The translations under genes were made by a program, and so were the position numbers. Under the pieces are notes generated by a model, which worked only from the letters and a program-made list of their open reading frames with translations, was not told the origin of the DNA and did not search any database. Below, in pieces: positions 15,452 to 48,897 of a DNA stretch of 64,000 nucleotides (position 1 is its first letter; each line of letters starts with the position of its first letter). Source of the stretch: Gigantopelta aegis (Eukaryota; Mollusca; Gastropoda; Neomphalida; Peltospiridae); the NCBI RefSeq assembly GCF_016097555.1, contig NC_054699.1, positions 4,784,169 to 4,848,168 on the forward strand, given 5' to 3'.

Positions 15452-15781
15452 CAGCTGAATAATATTTTTTCTTTAACGACACCACTAGAGCACATTGATT
15501 TATTAATCATCGGCTATTGGATGTCAAACATTTGGTACTTTGGACATAGAGTCAGAGAGGAAACCCGCTACATTTTTCCATTAGTAGCAAGATATCTTTT
15601 ACATACTCTATCACACAGACAGGATAAACATACCAGTTACTTTGATATACCAGTAGTAGTGCGCTGGCTGGAGCGAGAAATAGCCCAATTGGCCCACCGA
15701 CTGGGATCGATCCCAAACCGATCACACATCAAGCGGGCGCTTTACCAGTGGGCTACGTCCCGCCCCCAGCTGAATAATATT
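15452..15781 (-). mobile_element. Type I SINE with 15-bp target-site duplication
   Basis: The element occupies 15467-15766: tail b at the low end (ctttaacgacaccactagag) and head at the high end (ctttaccagtgggctacgtc, then ccgcccc). It is flanked by a perfect direct repeat, cagctgaataatatt, at 15452-15466 and 15767-15781. This is the clearest retrotransposition signature in the window and confirms both element ends. Confidence 0.92.
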
Positions 15782-16099
15782 ATGTTTGTTACAGACACAC
15801 CCACTGTGAGTTTGAAGAACAGCAGTGGGGCGCCATTGGAGCACAAGCACGTTTTTAGTTTACATGGTTATTGCGCAACATTTAATATTATGTTTGTTAC
15901 AGACACACCCACTGTGAGTTTGAAGAACAGCAGTGGGGCGCCATTGGAGCACAAGCACGTTTTTAGTTTACATGGTTATTGCGCAACATTTAATATTATG
16001 TTTGTTACAGACACACCCACTGTGAGTTTGAAGAACAGCAGTGGGGCGCCATTGGAGCACAAGCACGTTTTTAGTTTACATGGTTATTGCGCAACATTT
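15776..16099 (+). repeat. 108-bp unit repeated three times
   Basis: Copies begin at 15776, 15884 and 15992 and are practically identical. Each starts aatattatgtttgttacag and continues acacacccactgtgagtttg. Being divisible by three, the unit reads as a 36-residue repeat in one frame (core TDTPTVSLKNSSGAPLEHKH). Each copy contains a splice-acceptor-like ttgttacag just before that stretch. The first unit begins inside the right target-site duplication of the neighbouring SINE. Confidence 0.93.
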
Positions 16100-16204
16100 A
16101 ATATGCAAACACATTTTCTTGGATTTACAGAAAAACAAAATACATTAAACATATTTGTTATGATGGGTACCTTTAATGTTACGTGCTATCTATAACAATA
16201 GTAG

Positions 16205-19100: not shown

Positions 19101-19145
19101 GTGGGGGCCAGTACCTGGAGGCGAATCCAAGACCTATCCGGGCCA

Positions 19146-19655
19146 TTTCTCGTTCCAGCCAGTTCACTACGACTGGTATATCAAAGGCCGTGGTATGCGC
19201 TATCCTGTCTGTGGGATGGTGCATATAAAAGATCCCTTGCTACTAATGAAAAACTTTAGCGGGTTTCTTCTCTAAGACTATATCTATTTCTCGTTCCAGT
19301 CAGTTCACCACGACTGGTATATCAAATGCCGTGGTATGCGCTATCCTGTCTGTGGGATGGTGCATATAAAAGATCCCTTGCTACTAATGGAAAACTTTAG
19401 CGGGTTTCTTCTCTAAGACTATATCTATTTCTCGTTCCAGTCAGTTCACCACGACTGGTATATAAAAGGCCGTGGTATGCGCTATCCTGTCTGTGGGATG
19501 GTGCATATAAAAGATCCCTTGCTACTAATGTAAAAATGTAGCGGGTTTCCTATCTAAGGCTATATGTCAAAATTACTAAATGTTTGACACCCAATAGGCG
19601 ATGATTAATAAATCAATGTGCTCTAGTGGTGTCGTTAAACAAAAACAAACTTTAA
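19146..19655 (+). mobile_element. SINE with internal 141-bp triplication and tail b
   Basis: The SINE body starting tttctcgttccag occurs at 19146, 19287 and 19428, an exact 141-bp period. Each copy runs through gtgcatataaaagatccctt to gggtttcttctctaagacta. Only the last continues into tail b (gacacccaataggcgatgat, gctctagtggtgtcgttaaa). A type II-like head (ggagagagaagtcggtgtag) precedes the first copy. Confidence 0.9.
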
Positions 19656-34149: not shown

Positions 34150-35465
34150 TTAAATGTTGAAATTCAATGATGGAATGGAACCATTTCATTGCTAAATGTT
34201 GACATCAAGTGACATGATAGCTAAATGTTGACATCTAGTAACATGAAACACTTGATAGCTAAATGTCGACATCCAGTGACATGAAACAGTTGATAACTAA
34301 ATGTTAACATCTAGTGACATGAAGCACTCGATGGCTAAATGTTGACATCCAGTGACATGAAACACTCGATGGCTAAATGTTGACATCCAGTGACATGAAA
34401 CACTCGATGGCTAAATGTTGACATCCAGTGACATGAAACACTCGATGGCTAAATGTTGACATCCAGTGACATGAAACACTCGATAGCTAAATGTTGACAT
34501 CCAGTGACATGAAACAGTTCATAGCTAAATGTTGACATCCAGTGACATGAAACACTTAATGGCTAAATGTTGACATCCAGTGACATGATAGCTAAATGTT
34601 GACATCCAGTGACATGAAACACTTGATAGCTAAATGTTGACATTCAGTGACATGAAACAGTTGATAGCTAAATGTTGACATCCAGTGACATGAAACACTT
34701 GATAGCTAAATGTTGACATCCAGTCATATGAAACACTTGATGGCTAAATGTTGACATCCAGTGACATGAAACACTTGATAGCTAAATGTTGACATCCAGT
34801 GACATGAAACACTTGATGGCTAAATGTTGACATCCAGTGACATGAAACACTTGATAGCTAAATGTTGACATCCAGTGACATGAAACACTTGATGGCTAAA
34901 TGTTGACATCCAGTGACATGAAACACTTGATAGCTAAATGTTGACATCCAGTGGCATGATAGCTAAATGTTGACATCCAGTGACATGACAGCTAAATGTT
35001 GACATCCAGTAACATGAAACACTCTATGGCTAAATGTCGACATCCAGTGACATGAAACACTTGATAGCTAAATGTTGACATCCAGTGGCATGATAGCTAA
35101 ATGTTGACATCCAGTGACATGATAGCTAAATGTTGACATCTAGTAACATGAAACACTCGATGGCTAAATGTCGACATCCAGTGACATGAAACACTTGATA
35201 GCTAAATGTCGACATCCAGTGACATGAAACACTTGATAGCTAAATGTTGACATCCAGTGAAATGAAACACTTGATAGCTAAATGTTGACATTCAGTGACA
35301 TGAAACATTTAATGGCTAAATGTTGATTTTAAGTGATGGAATCCGACTAATGTGATTGATGGAATCCGACTAATGTGATGACTAAATGTTGTCATTAGTG
35401 GACATGGAACACTAAATGTTAAAATCAAGTGAAATGAAACAGTTGATGGCTAAATGTTGACATTA
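34150..35465 (+). repeat. 38-bp minisatellite forming most of the RSRC1 3' UTR
   Basis: About thirty units of the form gacatgaaacactcgatggc + taaatgttgacatccagt follow the stop codon. Some units are 29 bp through loss of nine bases. Units diverge toward both ends (tgatttt..., cattatttag), as expected for an array whose edges decay. It lies between the stop (34103) and the first AATAAA (35610), so it is predicted to be transcribed in the mRNA. Confidence 0.9.
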
Positions 35466-35609
35466 TTTAGTTCATGAAACCCATAAGTGAGTGGGTTGTG
35501 CATGTTGGAACTAAACTGAAGAAAACGATGTGAACAGTGGGTAAATGTTGACTCTTTAGTGATGGAAAGTATGACGGAATATTTAGTAAGTAAATGTTGA
35601 CACTAAAGT

Positions 35610-35615
35610 AATAAA
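35610..35615 (+). terminator. Probable RSRC1 polyadenylation signal
   Basis: The first AATAAA after the stop codon outside the minisatellite, followed by a T/TG-rich stretch (gtttgttaattaaattttct). Use of this signal would give a 3' UTR of about 1.5 kb. Confidence 0.6.
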
Positions 35616-35642
35616 GTTTGTTAATTAAATTTTCTGTCTCTA

Positions 35643-38600
35643 CTCTTTGAGAGGGTGGAGGGACATAGCCTAGTGGGAAAACACTAGCTTGATGGTCGGT
35701 CTAGGATCGATTGGATCCCCGCCGGTGGGCCAGTTGGACTATTTCTTGCTGTAGCCAGTGCACCACGACTAGTATATCAAAGGTCGTGGTATGTGCTATC
35801 CTGTCTGTGGGATGGTGCATATAAAAGATCTCTTGCTACTAATGGAAAAAATGTAGAGGGTTTCATCTCTACGACTGTCAAAGTGACCATATGTTTGACA
35901 TCCCATAGCCGATGATTAATAAATCAATGTACTCTACGACTGTCAAAGTGACCATATGTTTGACATCCCATAGCCGATGATTAATAAATCAATGTGCTCT
36001 AAGACTGTCAAAGTGACCATATGTTTGACATCCCATAGCCGATGATTAATAAATCAATGACTGTCAAAGTGACCATATGTTTGACATCCCATAGCCGATG
36101 ATTAATAAATCAATGTGCTCTACGACTGTCAAAGTGACCATATGTTTGACATCCCATAGCCGATGATTAATAAATCAATGACTGTCAAAGTGACCATATG
36201 TTTGACATCCCATAGCCGATGATTAATAAATCAATGTACTCTACGACTGTCAAAGACCATATGTTTGACATCCCATATGATTAATTCAATGACATCAAAG
36301 TGACCATATGTTTGCCATAGCCGATGATTAATAAATCAATGACTGTCAAAGTGACCATATGTTTGACATCCCATAGCCGATGATTAATAAATCAATGTGC
36401 TCTACGACTGTCAAAGTGACCATATGTTTGACATCCCATAGCTGATGATTAATAAATCAATGACTGTCAAAGTGACCATATGTTTGACATCCTATAGCTG
36501 ATGATTAATAAATCAATGACTGTCAAAGTGACCATATGTTTGACATCCCATAGCCGATGATTAATAAATCAATGACTGTCAAAGTGACCATATGTTTGAC
36601 ATCCCATAGCCGATGATTAATAAATCAATGACTCAAAGTGACCATATGTTTGACATGCCATAGCCGATGATTAATAAATCAATGTCCTCTATGACTGTCA
36701 AAGTGACCATATGTTTGACATGCCATAGCCGATGATTAATAAATCAATGTCCTCTATGACTGTCAAAGTGACCATATGTTTGACATGCCATAGCCGATGA
36801 TTAATAAAGCAATGACTGTCAAAGTGACCATATGTTTGACATCCCATAGCCGATGATTAATAAATCAATGTCCTCTATGACTGTCAAAGTGACCATATGT
36901 TTGACATGCCATAGCCGATGATTAATAAATCAACAGTGACCATATGTTTGACATCCCATAGCCGATGATTAATAAATCAATGTGCTCTACGACTGTCAAA
37001 GTGACCATATGTTTGACATCCCATAGCCGATGATTAATAAATCAATGACTGTCAAAGTGACCATATGTTTGACATCCCACAGCCGATGATTAATAAATCA
37101 GTGTGCTCTACGACTGTCAAAGTGACCATATGTTTGACATCCCATAGCCGATGATTAATAAATCAATGTGCTCTATGACTGTCAAAGTGACCATATGTTT
37201 GACATGCCATAGCCGATGATTAATAAATCAATGTCCTCTATGACTGTCAAAGTGACCATATGTTTGACATGCCATAGCCGATGATTAATAAATCAATGTC
37301 CTCTATGACTGTCAAAGTGACCATATGTTTGACATGCCATAGCCGATGATTAATAAATCAATGTCCTCTATGACTGTCAAAGTGACCATATGTTTGACAT
37401 GCCATAGCCGATGATTAATAAATCAATGTCCTCTATGACTGTCAAAGTGACCATATGTTTGACATGCCATAGCCGATGATTAATAAATCAACAGTGACCA
37501 TATGTTTGACATCCCATAGCCGATGATTAATAAATCAGTGTGCTCTACGACTGTCAAAGTGACCATATGTTTGACATGCCATAGCCGATGATTAATAAAT
37601 CAATGTCCTCTATGACTGTCAAAGTGACCATATGTTTGACATGCCATAGCCGATGATTAATAAATCAATGTCCTCTATGACTGTCAAAGTGACCATATGT
37701 TTGACATCCCATAGCCGATGATTAATAAATCAATGTACTCTACGACTGTCAAAGTGACCATATGTTTGACATCCCATAGCCGATGATTAATAAATCAATG
37801 TGCTCTACGACTGTCAAAGTGACCATATGTTTGTCATCCCATAGCCGATGATTAATAAATCAATGACTGTCAAAGTGACCATATGTTTGACATCCCATAG
37901 CCGATGATTAATAAATCAATGTGCTCTACGACTGTCAAAGTGACCATATGTTTGACATCCCATAGCCGATGATTAATAAATCAATGACTGTCAAAGTGAC
38001 CATATGTTTGACATCCTATAGCTGATGATTAATAAATCAATGACTGTCAAAGTGACCATATGTTTGACATCCCATAGCCGATGATTAATAAATCAATGAC
38101 TGTCAAAGTGACCATATGTTTGACATCCCATAGCCGATGATTAATAAATCAATGACTCAAAGTGACCATATGTTTGACATGCCATAGCCGATGATTAATA
38201 TCAATGTCCTCAATGACTGTCAAAGTGACCATATGTTTGACATGCCATAGCCGATGATTAATAAATCAATGTCCTCTATGACTGTCAAAGTGACCATATG
38301 TTTGACATGCCATAGCCGATGATTAATAAATCAATGACTGTCAAAGTGACCATATGTTTGACATCCCATAGCCGATGATTAATAAATCAATGTCCTCTAT
38401 GACTGTCAAAGTGACCATATGTTTGACATGCCATAGCCGATGATTAATAAATCATGACTGTCAAAGTGACCATATGTTTGACATCCCATAGCCGATGATT
38501 AATAAATCAATGTGCTCTACGACTGTCAAAGTGACCATATGTTTGACATCCCATAGCCGATGATTAATAAATCAATGACTGTCAAAGTGACCATATGTTT

Positions 38601-40600
38601 GACATCCCATAGCCGATGATTAATAAATCAATGTGCTCTACGACTGTCAAAGTGACCATATGTTTGACATCCCATAGCCGATGATTAATAAATCAATGTG
38701 CTCTATGACTGTCAAAGTGACCATATGTTTGACATGCCATAGCCGATGATTAATAAATCAATGTCCTCTACATGACTGTCAAAGTGACCATATGTTTGAC
38801 ATGCCATAGCCGATGATTAATAAATCAATGTCCTCTATGACTGTCAAAGTGACCATATGTTTGACATGCCATAGCCGATGATTAATAAATCAACAGTGAC
38901 CATATGTTTGACATCCCATAGCCGATGATTAATAAATCAGTGTGCTCTACGACTGTCAAAGTGACCATATGTTTGACATGCCATAGCCGATGATTAATAA
39001 ATCAATGTCCTCTATGACTGTCAAAGTGACCATATGTTTGACATGCCATAGCCGATGATTAATAAATCAATGTCCTCTATGACTGTCAAAGTGACCATAT
39101 GTTTGACATCCCATAGCCGATGATTAATAAATCAATGACTGTCAAAGTGACCATATGTTTGACATCCCATAGCCGATGATTAATAAATCAATGACTGTCA
39201 AAGTGACCATATGTTTGACATCCCACAGCCGATGATTAATAAATCAGTGTGCTCTACGACTGTCAAAGTGACCATATGTTTGACATGCCATAGCCGATGA
39301 TTAATAAATCAATGTCCTCTATGACTGTCAAAGTGACCATATGTTTGACATGCCATAGCCGATGATTAATAAATCAACAGTGACGATATGTTTGACATCC
39401 CATAGCCGATGATTAATAAATCAATGACTGTCAAAGTGACCATATGTTTGACATCCCACAGCCGATGATTAATAAATCAGTGTGCTCTACGACTGTCAAA
39501 GTGACCATATGTTTGACATCCCATAGCCGATGATTAATAAATCAATGTGCTCTATGACTGTCAAAGTGACCATATGTTTGACATGCCATAGCCGATGATT
39601 AATAAATCAATGTCCTCTATGACTGTCAAAGTGACCATATGTTTGACATGCCATAGCCGATGATTAATAAATCAACAGTGACCATATGTTTGACATCCCA
39701 TAGCCGATGATTAATAAATCAATGTGCTCTACGACTGTCAAAGTGACCATATGTTTGACATCCCATAGCCGATGATTAATAAATCAATGACTGTCAAAGT
39801 GACCATATGTTTGACATCCCACAGCCGATGATTAATAAATCAGTGTGCTCTACGACTGTCAAAGTGACCATATGTTTGACATCCCATAGCCGATGATTAA
39901 TAAATCAATGACTCAAAGTGACCATATGTTTGACATGCCATAGCCGATGATTAATAAATCAATGTCCTCTATGACTGTCAAAGTGACCATATGTTTGACA
40001 TGCCATAGCCGATGATTAATAAATCAACAGTGACCATATGTTTGACATCCCATAGCCGATGATTAATAAATCAATGTGCTCTACGACTGTCAAAGTGACC
40101 ATATGTTTGACATGCCATAGCCGATGATTAATAAATCAACAGTGACCATATGTTTGACATCCCATAGCCGATGATTAATAAATCAATGACTGTCAAAGTG
40201 ACCATATGTTTGACATTCCACAGCCGATGATTAATAAATCAGTGTGCTCTACGACTGTCAAAGTGACCATATGTTTGACATCCCATAGCCGATGATTAAT
40301 AAATCAATGACTCAAAGTGACCATATGTTTGACATCCCATAGCCGATGATTAATAAATCAATGTGCTCTACGACTGTCAAAGTGACCATATGTTTGACAT
40401 CCCATAGCCGATGATTAATAAATCAATGACTGTCAAAGTGACCATATGTTTGACATCCCATAGCCGATGATTAATAAATCAATGTGCTCTACGACTGTCA
40501 AAGTGACGATATGTTTGACATCCCATAGCCGATGATTAATATATCAATGTGCATTAGTGGTGTCCTTAAACGAAAACCAACAAACTTCTGCTCTTTGAGA
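35643..40600 (+). mobile_element. One type I SINE swollen by an internal satellite, with 10-bp target-site duplication
   Basis: A SINE head and body begin at 35653 (gggtggagggacatagccta, B-box region ctaggatcgattggatcccc, gatggtgcatataaaagatc). The last piece of tail b (gtgcattagtggtgtcctta, then caaactt) is at about 40548-40587. Everything between is tandem tail b sequence. The block is flanked by the perfect direct repeat ctctttgaga at 35643-35652 and 40591-40600. A normal copy is about 300 bp, so this one carries about 4.6 kb of extra DNA gained after insertion. Confidence 0.9.
35866..40546 (+). repeat. SINE-tail satellite: about 75 units of 65, 56 or about 47 bp
   Basis: The full unit is 65 bp: gactgtcaaagtgaccatat, gtttgacatcccatagccga, tgattaataaatcaatgtgc, tctac. 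The 56-bp form lacks the final gtgctctac; an approximately 47-bp form begins cagtgacc. Units carry diagnostic variants (tgccatag, cccacagcc, cctatagctg, tcctctatg). Rare variants recur about 1,524 bp apart (cctatagctg at 36491 and 38015; tgactcaaag at about 36629 and 38153), so a higher-order repeat exists. Confidence 0.92.
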
Positions 40601-40709
40601 AAAGTTGGATTCAGAGTCATACTGTGTACACTGTATTTGGTTTTTGTTCATATTTGCATGAATAAAAAAACCAATTGTGGTCAATCCTTAAATCAACATG
40701 TATGTAATA

Positions 40710-40887
40710 CAGTGAAACCCCTATAAACCGGACACCCTCAGGACCAAGTCAAATATCCGGTTGTAATAGGTATCCGGTTTAGAGAGAGTAAGTTCTTCAC
40801 TGATTTTTTTTTAAAAGGACCGTGAAAAATGTCTGGTTTTGAGAGCATTCCAGTTTACCGAGGGTCCAGTTTTGTGAGGTTTCACTG
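40710..40887. mobile_element. Tigger/pogo-like MITE, 178 bp
   Basis: Termini cagtgaaacc (40710) and ggtttcactg (ending 40887) are exact inverted repeats with TA on both outer sides (40708-40709 and 40888-40889). Sub-terminal phrases ataaaccggacaccctcagg and ccagtttaccgagggtcc are also inverted. TA target sites and CAGTGAAACC-type ends are characteristic of pogo/Tigger elements of the Tc1/mariner superfamily. There is no coding capacity. Confidence 0.88.
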
Positions 40888-41390
40888 TATATTGACACTA
40901 ATGACTTCTGTTTTATCTTAGTTGGGAGGTGGGTGGTTTCACTGTATATTGACACTAATGACTTCTCTTTTATCTTAGTTGGGAGGCGGGTGGTTTCACT
41001 GTATATTGACACTAATGACTTCTGTTTTATCTTAGTTGGGAGGCGGGTGGTTTCACTGTATATTGACACTAATGACTTCTGTTTTATGTTAGTTGGGAGG
41101 CGGGTGGTTTCACTGTATATTGACACTAATGACTTCTGTTTTATGTTAGTTGGGAGGCGGGTGGTTTCACTGTATATTGACACTAATGACTTCTGTTTTA
41201 TGTTAGTTGGGAGGCGGGTGGTTTCACTGTATATTGACACTAATGACTTCTGTTTTATGTTAGTTGGGAGGCGGGTGGTTTCACTGTATATTGACACTAA
41301 TGACTTCTGTTTTATGTTAGTTGGGAGGCGGGTGGTTTCACTGTATATTGACACTAATGACTTCTGTTTTATGTTAGTTGGGAGGTGGGT
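40878..41390. repeat. 57-bp minisatellite, nine copies, starting in the MITE end
   Basis: Units start ggtttcactgtatattgaca at 40878, 40935 and every 57 bp after. The first unit overlaps the last 10 bp of the MITE, so each unit contains a MITE terminus, the TA and about 45 bp of former flank (ending gttgggaggcgggt). Open frames on both strands are a consequence of the period. A G-run follows at 41393-41410. Confidence 0.94.
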
Positions 41391-41489
41391 GGGTGGGGGG
41401 GGGGGGGGGTGGTCAGGGTGCAGCTTGTTTCCACCTGAAGTATGATGAGCTGCAGCATGAGTCAGTCATACACGTTGGACCCCTGATTG

Positions 41490-44410: not shown

Positions 44411-47400
44411 CTACAGATGACTGACAAACCCAAAGGAGAACACTTCATTTGAGCCATTAAAATTACCATCACAGTCTAGTTCCACCTGAAATACTGATTC
44501 ATTTAACATCCCTTCTGTGTCGCATGGCTTTAAAAATACCATAAGCTTTTCGTGGAACCAGCGATCACATTCCTTAATAGAAACATGAGATTCCAGATGC
44601 TTGACGATTTCGTCGTCCATGACAACCGGCTCCGGGTCATCTCTGATCAGGAGACCTACCAGGAAGGTCCTCTGTTTGATCTGATGCTCGTACGCGAAGC
44701 GGAACACAAACAGCAGCCATTCGTCATGCGAACTAGCCTGGGATAGGACTATCACAATTCGGAAACTGTTGTTAACAGCACTGAGGATGTTCTCCTGGAT
44801 GGCTGCGCCAGGAATGAAGTTTCTGTCTGCAAGAATGCAATTGTATCCAATTTTTTCATAAGGAAGGACGACGTTTTCCATTGTGAATCGAAAATCTGCA
44901 TCGGCATACCACACGAACACGTTGGAATGTATTGTGTGATTTGAGACCGATAACTGAATGCTGCAGGTATGACTAGACACGGGGCTGCCGTTCTGACTGC
45001 TACTACAACTGACTTGCCCGTTGAGGCGGCTCACAGCCTTAACAGACAGGGGATTCATTGCACACAACCGTTTTTCGGATCGGGACTTTTGGTTTTGAGG
45101 TAAATAATACAAAATCCTCTTAAGAAACGAGGCTTCCTGAGTGTTTACATAACGTTTTGCTTTAATGTACTTCTGTAGCGATTTATGGGTAATTTTCTTC
45201 GGTGAGCACCGATGGATAATTGGTAAAAGGAAATTCGATTTTTGGTATCGACGTTTAGTTAAGGCAGCATCTAACGTCATTCTTGCAATGGCATCAACCT
45301 CTGAATCTTTTGTGAGAATAAACAATATCCTTTTGCTGCTCTGGACTGCGTGTGAAATATTCTCCTGATACGAAACCCCTATTCGTGAATCACGATGTAT
45401 ATCGAACAGTTTTAACCCATGCATCATCTCTAGTGGCTCCGTTATATGGCCCTGCACCCAGTCGACTAGGGTTGACGTATAGAACACAAACACGTCATAC
45501 TGACAGCTCCATCGATCATCCTTTTGGTCGAATGGGTGCAGACCTGTGTGGACGAAGATCCAGACTTTGAAATCCTGCCACATTATAAACAGAGCCAAAC
45601 ACAGAGTGAGAAGAAGAAGTACAACGCATGTTGGTATGGCTATTGGAAGAATGAATGCTTGTAGGGATATCTCACACACAAAGTCTTCGTCTGGAACAAA
45701 TGACACATGGATACCCTCATCACTTACAGAATTCACGCATTTAATGTTGGCAGTGTCTTGTATAATTTTACCGTTGAAAAGAATCCAGTTCTTCATCCAG
45801 AGAGCATAACAGTTACACATGAGTGGATTTCCACCAACCTTTAGACTTGTTAGATTTAATTTTGTTATCACGTGAGGTATGGACGTGAGGAGGTTATCAT
45901 CTAGATAAAGCGTCTGTAAAGAAGTCATCTGTTTAAGAGTATCTGGACGTATGTTCTGAATAGCATTTCCACTCAAAAGAATAGAAACCATATCCGTGTT
46001 ATGAATACCTACGTCAATGTCTTCTATCGCATTGCCTTGCAACCACATCTCCAACTTGCCCATAGGAAGATTTTTCGGCATAGCAAGCAAACCCATTCGG
46101 CGACAGTCAACAATAATTGTTCCAATCTCAGATCGCCTATAGCATTTGCACATCGTTGGACACTTTACCAAATCAGCCTCACAATATGTTTCTCTCGGGG
46201 CAACACTAAACAACATCCTTCCCTCTAGGTCGTTGGGATAACTGCAGATCCAATTATCGAACATGTACTCCATTCCAGTAAGCGAGTTGTTTGCTCTCAA
46301 GCCTTCCACAGCACGAGTTAAGTTCAGAATGTTGCAGTCACAAGTAATGGGATTATTGTCGAGAATGATCTTAAAATGTTTCAGAATGAGACTCAGCCTC
46401 CAGTAGGATTCATATCCTTTAACAGCCGAGAACAGAAAGGATGTCACTCGACTTCCCGACATGAAAATCACTCTTGGCTCGCCTTTGACGTCATTCAGAT
46501 TGGGAGTTCCTGTACTCAACGAATCGGCTAAGCTAGCGACCAAGTCGCTCCACGCCACGTCTGCTTCGATTTTCACAAAATCAATTTCGGTGATGGAACT
46601 CTTAGTCAAATATGCTCTACGCAGTCCACGAAGTAGAAAGACCACTTCTGGAAATTGTGACAGTGGGTTACTCTGGAGATGAAGCTCCTTGAGATGAGTA
46701 TTGATGCCCTGAAATGCCGACTGAGTAATATAGCGAATGTTGTTGTCTTGCAGGTAAAGAGTTACAAGTCTTCCTAGATCACGGAATAACCCACCCTGCA
46801 ACGACGCAATACTGTTGTTGGCTAAATTAAGTGATCTGAGCTCACGAAGAAATAAAAATGTGTCATCGTGAAATGAAGTAAAACTGTTCCCTTGCAGTTC
46901 TAGTTTTCCCAGCTGTGACAGGGAGTGAAATACGTCTGACGCCAGCGAGTGCAGATGGTTACCGTCAAGCAGCAGATACTGCAGACGATAGGTATTAGAA
47001 AACACACCAGAGGATAGCTCCTTTAAATTGCAGTGTGAAAGAGACAGTTTGTCTATCCATCCATGAAACTGAAAATTTGTCAAATTCAGATTAGGATTGT
47101 GATTGAGTATGAACTCTCGCCTGTACACATTGGCTGGAATATCCAGGACACCAGAATACGTATAATGGCTCTGAAGAATTCCGTTTCTAGACAGGTTATG
47201 GGGTAAATTCATGGTATGGTTATTCCACGGAAAGTATGGTGGTCTTGTAAAGTCGTTATATGTTAAATCTAACCCTTGTAGGTTGGGCATCAGAATTTGA
47301 AAATCGTCGATTGATCTCAGGGACATGTTTTGGAAAATTACCTCAACAACATTGTGGACGTCACAACTCAGTAGACTGGTTATGTTGATAGGCGTAATGC

Positions 47401-47896
47401 CATTGCTGAGTACAGTTAGGCTACCAATCTGCGTGAGACTGGAGCACTCGACTTCGGACGCATTTTGCACTAGATCCGACTGTCCAACCAGAGTCGTGAC
47501 CTTGAAGTGGAATAAATTGGCCAGTCTTTCAAAATCATCCATGAACAAACGGCAGTCAGTTTGCAGATAACCTATAACGTTGTGCATTGTCGTAATCGAG
47601 CCGGGCAGTATGCGGACTGTCAGAGGTGGATCGAGAACAGGACAAACCATATTTAGTATGAGGTTCCTCGGCTGTGTTTTGTTGACCTGCGACATCAAAA
47701 ACTGGTCTTCCTCTATGAAGCAGCTCCTGGCGCCATTACTGGCTGGAGTTATTTTTAATCCAATTAGTTCGTTCTGTAGATCTCGTCCATGCACTGTAAA
47801 GAGAGTGTGAAATTTCTTGTTCACGACTTTGACGCGACAGTTTTCTAGACACAGTACAGCACGAAACGCCATCATCATCAGAATACGCTGCCACAT
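44411..47896 (-). CDS. Toll-like receptor with two tandem TIR domains, single exon
   Basis: This intact 1,161-residue frame runs from ATG at 47896 to TAG at 44411-44413. Residues about 1-17 (MWQRILMMMAFRAVLCL) look like a signal peptide. The ectodomain has leucine-rich repeats, clearest at about 300-416 (LQYLLLDGNHLHSL, LRSLNLANNSIASL). A C-terminal LRR cap (CDCN at 519-522, Cys at 551 and 572) is followed by an N-terminal-type cap (CPTMCKC from 579, VDC to 598), further LRRs and a second cap (CNCYALW from 694). This is the multiple-cysteine-cluster layout typical of protostome Tolls. A membrane segment is at about 747-772. TIR 1 spans about 797-933 (YDVFVFYTS, then HRDSRIG) and TIR 2 about 992-1125 (VFVWYADAD, then DRNFIPG, ending WFHEKL), joined by a Ser-rich linker. 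Role (membrane sensing of microbial or endogenous ligands, signalling through MyD88-type adaptors) is inferred from the family. Small plus-strand frames inside are shadows. Confidence 0.95.
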   Translation of the reverse strand: MWQRILMMMAFRAVLCLENCRVKVVNKKFHTLFTVHGRDLQNELIGLKITPASNGARSCFIEEDQFLMSQVNKTQPRNLILNMVCPVLDPPLTVRILPGSITTMHNVIGYLQTDCRLFMDDFERLANLFHFKVTTLVGQSDLVQNASEVECSSLTQIGSLTVLSNGITPINITSLLSCDVHNVVEVIFQNMSLRSIDDFQILMPNLQGLDLTYNDFTRPPYFPWNNHTMNLPHNLSRNGILQSHYTYSGVLDIPANVYRREFILNHNPNLNLTNFQFHGWIDKLSLSHCNLKELSSGVFSNTYRLQYLLLDGNHLHSLASDVFHSLSQLGKLELQGNSFTSFHDDTFLFLRELRSLNLANNSIASLQGGLFRDLGRLVTLYLQDNNIRYITQSAFQGINTHLKELHLQSNPLSQFPEVVFLLRGLRRAYLTKSSITEIDFVKIEADVAWSDLVASLADSLSTGTPNLNDVKGEPRVIFMSGSRVTSFLFSAVKGYESYWRLSLILKHFKIILDNNPITCDCNILNLTRAVEGLRANNSLTGMEYMFDNWICSYPNDLEGRMLFSVAPRETYCEADLVKCPTMCKCYRRSEIGTIIVDCRRMGLLAMPKNLPMGKLEMWLQGNAIEDIDVGIHNTDMVSILLSGNAIQNIRPDTLKQMTSLQTLYLDDNLLTSIPHVITKLNLTSLKVGGNPLMCNCYALWMKNWILFNGKIIQDTANIKCVNSVSDEGIHVSFVPDEDFVCEISLQAFILPIAIPTCVVLLLLTLCLALFIMWQDFKVWIFVHTGLHPFDQKDDRWSCQYDVFVFYTSTLVDWVQGHITEPLEMMHGLKLFDIHRDSRIGVSYQENISHAVQSSKRILFILTKDSEVDAIARMTLDAALTKRRYQKSNFLLPIIHRCSPKKITHKSLQKYIKAKRYVNTQEASFLKRILYYLPQNQKSRSEKRLCAMNPLSVKAVSRLNGQVSCSSSQNGSPVSSHTCSIQLSVSNHTIHSNVFVWYADADFRFTMENVVLPYEKIGYNCILADRNFIPGAAIQENILSAVNNSFRIVIVLSQASSHDEWLLFVFRFAYEHQIKQRTFLVGLLIRDDPEPVVMDDEIVKHLESHVSIKECDRWFHEKLMVFLKPCDTEGMLNESVFQVELDCDGNFNGSNEVFSFGFVSHL

Positions 47897-48897
47897 GATG
47901 TTACCAAGGCAATGTCAAAAAAGGAGTCTGTTTGAATGGCCTCCGATATTTTAGCGTCCACCAAAATAATGTCCAACATGAACAATATTTGCATACAGTG
48001 CTTCTAATAGCCGTAGCTAGGGAACACGTGTTTATCGAGTCCGTTGACAAGGAATTAAATTTTAGACCTGCGCTAGACAGTCGTATTGGTTTTTCTACAC
48101 GCTCAGCTGAAAGAGCCCTGACCTCCATTCGCAGAGTCCCCGGTTCGCATCTCGGAAAATGGAGGTAGAGTTTTCTGTTTATTCAGAATCTTGTCAGATA
48201 AAAAAACTAAAAAGTTGCCCCTTAATGTGTTCTGTATCTGTCTGGAGTCGATCATTCCATCGATTAATGTGTCCAGAAAAGGCGTGTTTAAGCTCTTGTT
48301 GGATCCAAGGTCGTGTCACATAGTTGTTTTAATTTTTACAATAAATGGATATCATCAAAAACTACAATTTCGCCAGGTGTCTTAAAAAGTCACAAAAACG
48401 AATACTACACCTCTTTCAAACGTAATGTTTGTGTTGACAAGACTGCTTCCGAAAACTGAATCGTCGGACTGTGTGATACAATGCAATACATCATGTAATA
48501 TCCATATATTTCTACCTGATCCGTGTGTGTTGACTATGATTGTATCCATGTGGTAAAATCACTGTATTAAGCAACGATCTTTTAATTTGCTTAGAAGTGA
48601 TATCTCTCTTTGTTTTAAGTAAACAGCATCATCACGCACCGACATGAAACATCAACGGCCATTTCAGTGACGAATATTCGGAAAATAGGTTCTTCAACAC
48701 CGTTAGCATAATGTACTCTGCGAAAGTCGCTGCAATGACGCATTCTGAAATATAAAATGTAGATACATGTATGTATGCATGTATTGTTAAATATTCGTAA
48801 CACTCATCGTCTCTTGACTATAGTTCTTCCGGGTTTAAATGCTGGGTCGTACGGTAGTTAAACTAATTAACTGAGATTGAGTCACAAGAAAGTGACA
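47897..48897. other. Upstream flank of the TLR, no second gene seen
   Basis: This contains the expected 5' UTR and promoter of the TLR (reading leftward), but no TATA box or start site could be assigned. Short frames on both strands at 47901-48168 do not resemble a known family. Confidence 0.5.

What the first reader, a model, noticed from the sequence alone, without database searches (positions are those of the whole stretch)
35643..40600. A single SINE insertion has grown a 4.7-kb satellite from its own tail, and its target-site duplication is still intact
The block starts with an ordinary SINE head and body, ends with the last 40 bp of the same SINE's tail, and is flanked by the perfect 10-bp repeat ctctttgaga. 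Between them the tail segment is repeated about 75 times. This dates the order of events: insertion first, then in-place amplification. It captures satellite birth from a SINE at a defined locus. Other SINE copies here (14924, 15467) show the unamplified tail.
Basis: partly seen in the sequence, partly recalled or inferred. Interest (0 to 1): 0.9.

Follow-up and report, generated by a model that had tools for sequence, protein, structure and literature searches.

The report
SINE tail grown into private array
One copy of a small jumping element, in what looks like a mollusc genome, has had a 65-letter piece of its own tail multiplied to 78 copies in place, and other copies of the element in the same genome carry smaller and larger arrays of the same kind, so it seeds repetitive DNA repeatedly, by a route already proposed for other species.

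Summary
A tRNA-type SINE (head and body 35653-35866, tail remnant 40552-40590) is flanked by ctctttgaga, a 10-mer found nowhere else in the window. Between head and tail lie 78 units of a 65-bp tail segment. In the parent subfamily this segment is the stretch from one CTCTA to the next. The array's junction is private to this locus, and the array contains a ~1.8-kb block duplication (copies 99.35% identical).

Searching the 1.15-Gb source genome shows the locus is not unique. The same tail is tandemised at many loci, with periods of 36-96 bp and 2 to ~109 copies. Of 25 such loci tested, 8 (7 distinct insertions) keep 8-15-bp target-site repeats. One insertion present twice (C6) has the same target-site repeat but 5 versus 19 units: length changed after insertion. 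Among the candidates scored, no short or empty allele of the focal locus was found.

'Insertion first, growth in place' is supported, though the insertion may already have carried two tails. 'Satellite' overstates it: this is a single-locus minisatellite of a kind described for Alu. The wider series, including one register shared by four loci, is the more interesting result.

The parts
35643..35652 (.). left target-site duplication ctctttgaga
   Evidence: read; one of only two occurrences in the window
35653..35866 (+). SINE head and body, with a full A-box-like match (35666-35676) and a degraded B-box-like match
   Evidence: blastn to other copies, alignments, box scan with recalled consensus
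35867..35871 (+). left CTCTA 5-mer bounding the unit
   Evidence: parent copies; microhomology
35867..40551 (+). tandem array, 78 units of 65 bp and its 47-67-bp variants
35889..37694 (+). block 1 (units 1-30) of an internal block duplication
   Evidence: 99.35% identical to block 2 over 1383 aligned bp, 7 gaps; unit order
37695..39096 (+). block 2 (units 31-53)
40552..40590 (+). SINE 3' tail remnant; its own right-hand copy of the 5-mer now reads CATTA
40591..40600 (.). right target-site duplication ctctttgaga

Best explanation
A single tRNA-type SINE inserted and made a 10-bp target-site duplication. In its subfamily the tail carries two CTCTA 5-mers 65 bp apart. Mispairing between them, by replication slippage or unequal exchange, duplicated the 65-bp segment. 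Slippage and unequal exchange between the copies then grew the array in place, by single units and by blocks including one of about 1.8 kb, while small deletions made the shorter unit types. The array has not left its locus: it is a private minisatellite inside a SINE. Shown here: the anatomy, the direct repeat, the private junction, the block duplication, and 5-bp microhomology at the junction (the right-hand CTCTA is read from the subfamily and the array junctions, because the focal copy now reads CATTA). Shown at another locus only: one insertion with two array lengths. Inferred: slippage or unequal exchange as the route, and a single tail at the time of insertion.
For: Head-array-tail order inside one 10-bp direct repeat. 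Unit length equals the CTCTA-to-CTCTA distance in the parent subfamily. P of 5 or more bp of microhomology for random breakpoints on the SINE consensus is 0.0065. Focal junction 19 of 22 matches in the array, the other 3 single SINEs. Block duplication. Paralogous insertions with the same target-site repeat and 5 versus 19 units. 8 of 25 other tandem-tail loci keep direct repeats of 8 bp or more (null for 8 or more is 0.014).
Against: No empty or single-tail allele found (40 of 225 candidates scored). One haplotype and no relatives. Only 6 of 15 hand-read junctions have 3 or more bp of microhomology; 9 have 0 or 1, so the flanking-repeat route does not cover all arrays. Many other tails are duplicated with the SINE 3' end included, which fits events during reverse transcription. 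Of 11 unamplified copies given to the same script only 2 showed a direct repeat of 8 bp or more, so direct repeats are often undetected or lost.
Confidence: 0.8

Rival explanations
1. The SINE arrived with its tail already in two or a few copies, made during reverse transcription by template jumping or inherited from a source SINE with a repeated tail; only later growth was in place.
For: Many tail dimers elsewhere join the SINE 3' end to an internal point (248 matches). One 63-bp register occurs at four loci, in bodies that look like two SINE types.
Against: The focal unit has two internal breakpoints at a 5-bp repeat and excludes the SINE 3' end. Its junction is found at no other locus in tandem.
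Confidence: 0.14
2. An older satellite lies here by chance between two SINE pieces, or the SINE inserted into it.
For: The neighbourhood is rich in unrelated arrays (34215-35326 and 40878-41392).
Against: The unit is SINE tail sequence, contiguous with the head on the left and the tail on the right, inside one direct repeat. The register is private.
Confidence: 0.03
3. The array length or order is an assembly artefact.
For: Long tandem arrays are often misassembled (general knowledge); only one copy of the flanks is present.
Against: Blocks carry private substitutions and indels and unit variants are interspersed. Arrays of the same kind occur at many other places.
Confidence: 0.02

Closest known systems
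TE-derived minisatellites of the human genome, including a 17 x 52-bp array from AluJo (Ahmed and Liang 2012, PMC3389668; abstract, section 3 part 1 of 2, and sections 3.3 and 3.4 read)
   Same: A segment of one SINE copy amplified in place; 300 of 7,276 such repeats there are flanked by 5-20-bp direct repeats, as proposed by Haber and Louis
   Different: 78 units with both SINE ends and the target-site duplication kept; 65-bp unit from the tail of a different, mollusc-type SINE
Short-flanking-repeat model of minisatellite origin (Haber and Louis 1998, seen only as cited in PMC6947457 passages, and PMC3389668)
   Same: A motif bounded by repeats of about 5-10 bp is duplicated by slippage or unequal crossing-over
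   Different: Here the right-hand repeat of the focal copy has since mutated and is inferred from the subfamily
PcH-sat of the limpet Patella caerulea (PMC11121367; abstract and passages)
   Same: Mollusc tandem DNA with a segment similar to the 3' part of a SINE (Nin-SINE)
   Different: 179-bp monomer, about 10% of the genome and pericentromeric, without a defined birth locus; sequences not compared here
Mouse VNTR family from SINE B1 and minisatellites from human Alu (listed in PMC6947457 and PMC9659126, passages only)
   Same: SINE-derived variable tandem repeats
   Different: Not compared by sequence

Membership tests
tRNA-derived SINE | Internal pol III A and B boxes in the head | tested here: inconclusive
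   Consensus A box 11/11 and B box 9/11 against recalled consensus; focal A box 11/11, B box at best 8/11; no tRNA gene called by ARAGORN
tRNA-derived SINE | Dispersed copies with target-site duplications | tested here: met
   Many dispersed copies; direct repeats of 10 bp (focal), 15 bp (15467-15767) and 12 bp (L023), and up to 15 bp around other arrays
Nin-SINE | Nin domain | not testable with these tools
   No Nin reference sequence was available to align
Minisatellite seeded by short flanking repeats | Unit bounded by a short direct repeat in the precursor | tested here: met
   CTCTA, 65 bp apart, both present in 6 of 10 fetched subfamily copies (reading); microhomology 5 bp, null P 0.0065
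Minisatellite | Length variation between alleles | not tested
   One haplotype only; length variation seen only between paralogous insertions at another locus
Satellite DNA family | Same monomer register in arrays at several loci | tested here: not met
   Focal junction in tandem only at the focal locus. A different, 63-bp register is at four loci

The most novel reading that the evidence does not exclude
The 3' tail module of this SINE is a recurrent seed of tandem arrays. Retrotransposition scatters it; copies are duplicated repeatedly and independently in private registers (some perhaps during reverse transcription, with a preferred breakpoint at CCAATAGC); and each seed may grow in place to kilobases. 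The genome then holds the stages side by side: single tails, dimers, arrays of 4 to 19 units, 78- and ~109-unit arrays, and one register already present at four loci in what look like two SINE bodies. Paralogous insertions with the same target-site duplication make growth per locus measurable.
Probability: 0.6. Interest if true: 0.6.

Novelty: new member of a known kind. Interest (0 to 1): 0.45.

Why it matters
How a satellite repeat is born is usually inferred from finished families whose starting point is lost. Here the ancestor, the end points, the repeats that bound the unit and the growth steps can be read at one locus, and the same genome offers many sibling SINE-tail arrays of different size and register. 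That makes seed rate, growth rate, use of microhomology and escape from the locus countable in individuals and relatives. The principle itself, SINE-derived minisatellites growing in place, is already in print for human Alu.

Tried and rejected
Older satellite with flanking SINE pieces: rejected. Spread of the focal register: the 3 outside matches are single SINEs with a changed left context. SINE-sized or empty allele: not found among 40 scored of 225 candidates. Viral and prokaryote collections: 0 matches for one 30-nt tail pattern each. tRNA and Rfam scans of the window: nothing (Rfam at gathering threshold). Species name: not obtained; a twin-TIR Toll-like ORF and a 71%-identical unnamed relative fit a mollusc, where Tolls with tandem TIRs are reported (PMC4929906, start of abstract in the listing). 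Search of papers for four 17-nt pieces of the SINE tail: 0 papers. Other paper searches.

Not obtained: the number of single tail motifs (denominator; pattern did not complete) and the control count for the CCAATAGC breakpoint (pattern with GTTTGACA, never answered). A count for periods over 78 bp was planned and not sent. The hotspot therefore rests on listings only, and the patterns cannot see breakpoints downstream of CCAATAGC.

One search (microhomology) held misaligned strings; one search is the corrected run and the one used. Its 15 junctions are hand-read, with right contexts partly taken from the consensus tail; 14 other fetched loci (L009-L016, L073, L074, L076, L078, L066/L062/L063/L067 counted as one register) were left out. 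In one search the 43 strings are one per listed locus (46 loci) minus 3 that repeat a register already entered. An earlier count gave 61 focal matches; a recount of the listing gives 63.

Full report
Observation. The window holds a SINE at 35653-40590 whose tail is amplified. Head and body run 35653-35866. Then follow 78 units, counted by the anchor atatgtttg, to about 40551, and then the last 39 bp of the SINE. The 10-mer ctctttgaga stands at 35643-35652 and 40591-40600 and nowhere else in the window, on either strand. Tandem Repeats Finder gives a 65-bp period over 36003-40549 and another 65-bp row over 35867-36277.

What the unit is. The unit is plain SINE tail. In one search a unit dimer had 84 matches: 38 in the focal array, and many others that are dispersed single tails at 93-97% over about 70 bp. 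Ten of these were fetched, chosen by that similarity (L019-L028), and aligned. They share the unit's letters apart from a few sites. By my reading, 6 of the 10 carry both a CTCTA at the start of the unit and a CTCTA just after it; the distance between the two is 65 bp. The array junction is what one misalignment between these 5-mers would give. For random breakpoints on the SINE consensus, microhomology of 5 or more bp has P 0.0065. The focal copy's own right-hand 5-mer now reads CATTA, so that repeat is inferred from the subfamily and from the array junctions.

How it grew. Unit types are few and recur: 26 types, the commonest 15, 13 and 10 times, with lengths from 47 to 67 bp. In exact type strings the longest repeat is 5 units, no more than shuffles give (mean 3.0, maximum 6 of 500). 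Allowing near matches, a unit-level local alignment scores 37 against a maximum of 25 in 40 shuffles and pairs units 9-30 with 34-53 in order; units 1-5 also match 31-35 by eye. As DNA, block 1 (35889-37694) and block 2 (37695-39096) are 99.35% identical over 1383 aligned bp with 7 gaps, against 96.4% and 96.7% to the remaining third. So the array grew by single units and by at least one block of about 1.8 kb. The focal head and body differ from the subfamily consensus at 21 of 184 non-CpG and 10 of 28 CpG sites; the six best-covered single copies differ at 13-17 of 170-184 non-CpG sites and the four truncated ones at 16-28 of 77-165. The 41 full-length units differ from the subfamily unit at 2.7 of 65 sites on average. 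The SINE is therefore not young, and the array interior is more uniform than the rest of the element.

Private to one locus. The focal junction has 22 exact matches in 1.15 Gb: 19 in the array and 3 single SINEs that reach the pattern by a changed left context. A query of both flanks joined at one target-site copy found only the two flanks of this locus at full length, and otherwise short matches to dispersed repeats within the right flank; 40 of 225 candidates were scored.

It is one of many. A pattern asking for two copies of GATTAATAAATCA 48-78 bp apart has 664 matches, control 2; of the 100 rows listed, 63 are the focal array. A pattern that the focal array cannot match has 352 matches, control 0. 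The listed rows of both calls fall in 59 loci, the focal one included. Thirty tandem-tail loci were fetched and read against the SINE consensus. Periods run from 36 to 96 bp and copies from about 2 to about 50 within the fetched stretches. The largest continues in a further stretch to C6:21375893-21380912, 46 bp, about 109 units, about 5.0 kb; it exceeds the focal array, but no SINE 3' end is seen after it. Direct repeats of 8 bp or more were found at 8 of 25 loci tested (7 distinct insertions: 15, 14, 12, 11 or 10, 10, 8 and 8 bp), where the random expectation is 1.4%; 17 of 25 showed none, and so did 9 of 11 unamplified copies at unrefined ends.

In-place change seen directly. L069 and L070 (C6:5.79 and 5.81 Mb) are two copies of one SINE insertion: the same ttttttaatag-type repeat on both sides (10 and 11 bp shared), 5' flank 96-97% and 3' flank 92.6% identical, and 5.1 against 19.0 units of 36-37 bp. 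Their unit is bounded by AATGT, again 5 bp. The direction of change is not known. L013 and L014 probably share an insertion too, with different arrays, but their flanks are only about 82-86% alike and show no clear target-site repeat.

What does not fit. Only 6 of 15 hand-read junctions have 3 or more bp of microhomology (null 5.9%); the other 9 have 0 or 1, so more than one seed mechanism must be at work (mean 1.67 against 0.70, P 0.00085). Many dimers elsewhere join the SINE 3' end to CCAATAGC: 248 matches, control 0, and 31 of 43 distinct listed junctions break within 3 nt of it. I read this, without proof, as template jumping during reverse transcription; the control count I wanted did not complete. 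A 63-bp register with the filler TATACGAC lies at exactly four loci by exact match (17 matches), in bodies that look like two SINE types; how it moved is open.

Known kind. PMC3389668 (abstract; section 3 part 1 of 2; sections 3.3 and 3.4) reports 7,276 TE-derived tandem repeats in human, a 17 x 52-bp array from AluJo extended in place, and 300 cases with flanking direct repeats of 5-20 bp. PMC6947457 (passages) cites the flanking-repeat model. PMC11121367 (abstract and passages) derives a limpet satellite from a Nin-SINE. PMC9659126 (passages) lists others. I file the focal array as a new member of a known kind, with an unusually complete anatomy and a rich set of siblings.

Limits. One haplotype, one individual, no relatives, no species name. 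The DNA search scores the best candidates only, the listings stop at about 100 rows, and the genome search was busy for most attempts, so loci are a sample and there is no denominator.

Noticed in passing
window 19145-19650: A second SINE-internal array in the same window: a 141-bp body segment of another SINE copy, three times, followed by a normal tail.
   Followed up: partly
window 40709-41392: A 57-bp x 9 array whose unit begins with ggtttcactgta, the apparent right terminal inverted repeat of an element starting acagtgaaacccc near 40709 (pogo/Tigger-like by recall only); its left end matches several other contigs at 90-100%.
   Followed up: partly
window 15467-16104: A 108-bp x 3.1 array (100% match) abuts the 5' end of an unamplified SINE that has a 15-bp direct repeat.
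   Followed up: no
window 34215-35620: An unrelated 38-bp array ends about 320 bp before the SINE, with similar words by eye up to about 35620, so the SINE sits beside an existing tandem-repeat region.
   Followed up: no
window 44411-47914 (-): Open frame for a leucine-rich-repeat receptor with two TIR domains; a relative at 71% identity over the full length is held without a name.
   Followed up: partly
L062, L063, L066, L067 (C2:41.74, C2:44.42, C5:40.02, C5:40.62 Mb): A 63-bp SINE-tail register with the filler TATACGAC occurs at these four loci only by exact match, in bodies that look like two SINE types; how it spread is unexplained.
   Followed up: partly
genome-wide, listings: Tail duplications at other loci tend to start at CCAATAGC: 31 of 43 distinct listed junctions break within 3 nt of it; the intended control did not complete.
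   Followed up: partly
L012 (C7:31.35 Mb) and L072 (C1:46.04 Mb): L012 holds a locus repeated three times at about 3.1 kb, each copy with a doubled SINE tail; L072 has an 84-bp x 9 array of a SINE body segment close to a 39-bp tail array of about 12 units.
   Followed up: no
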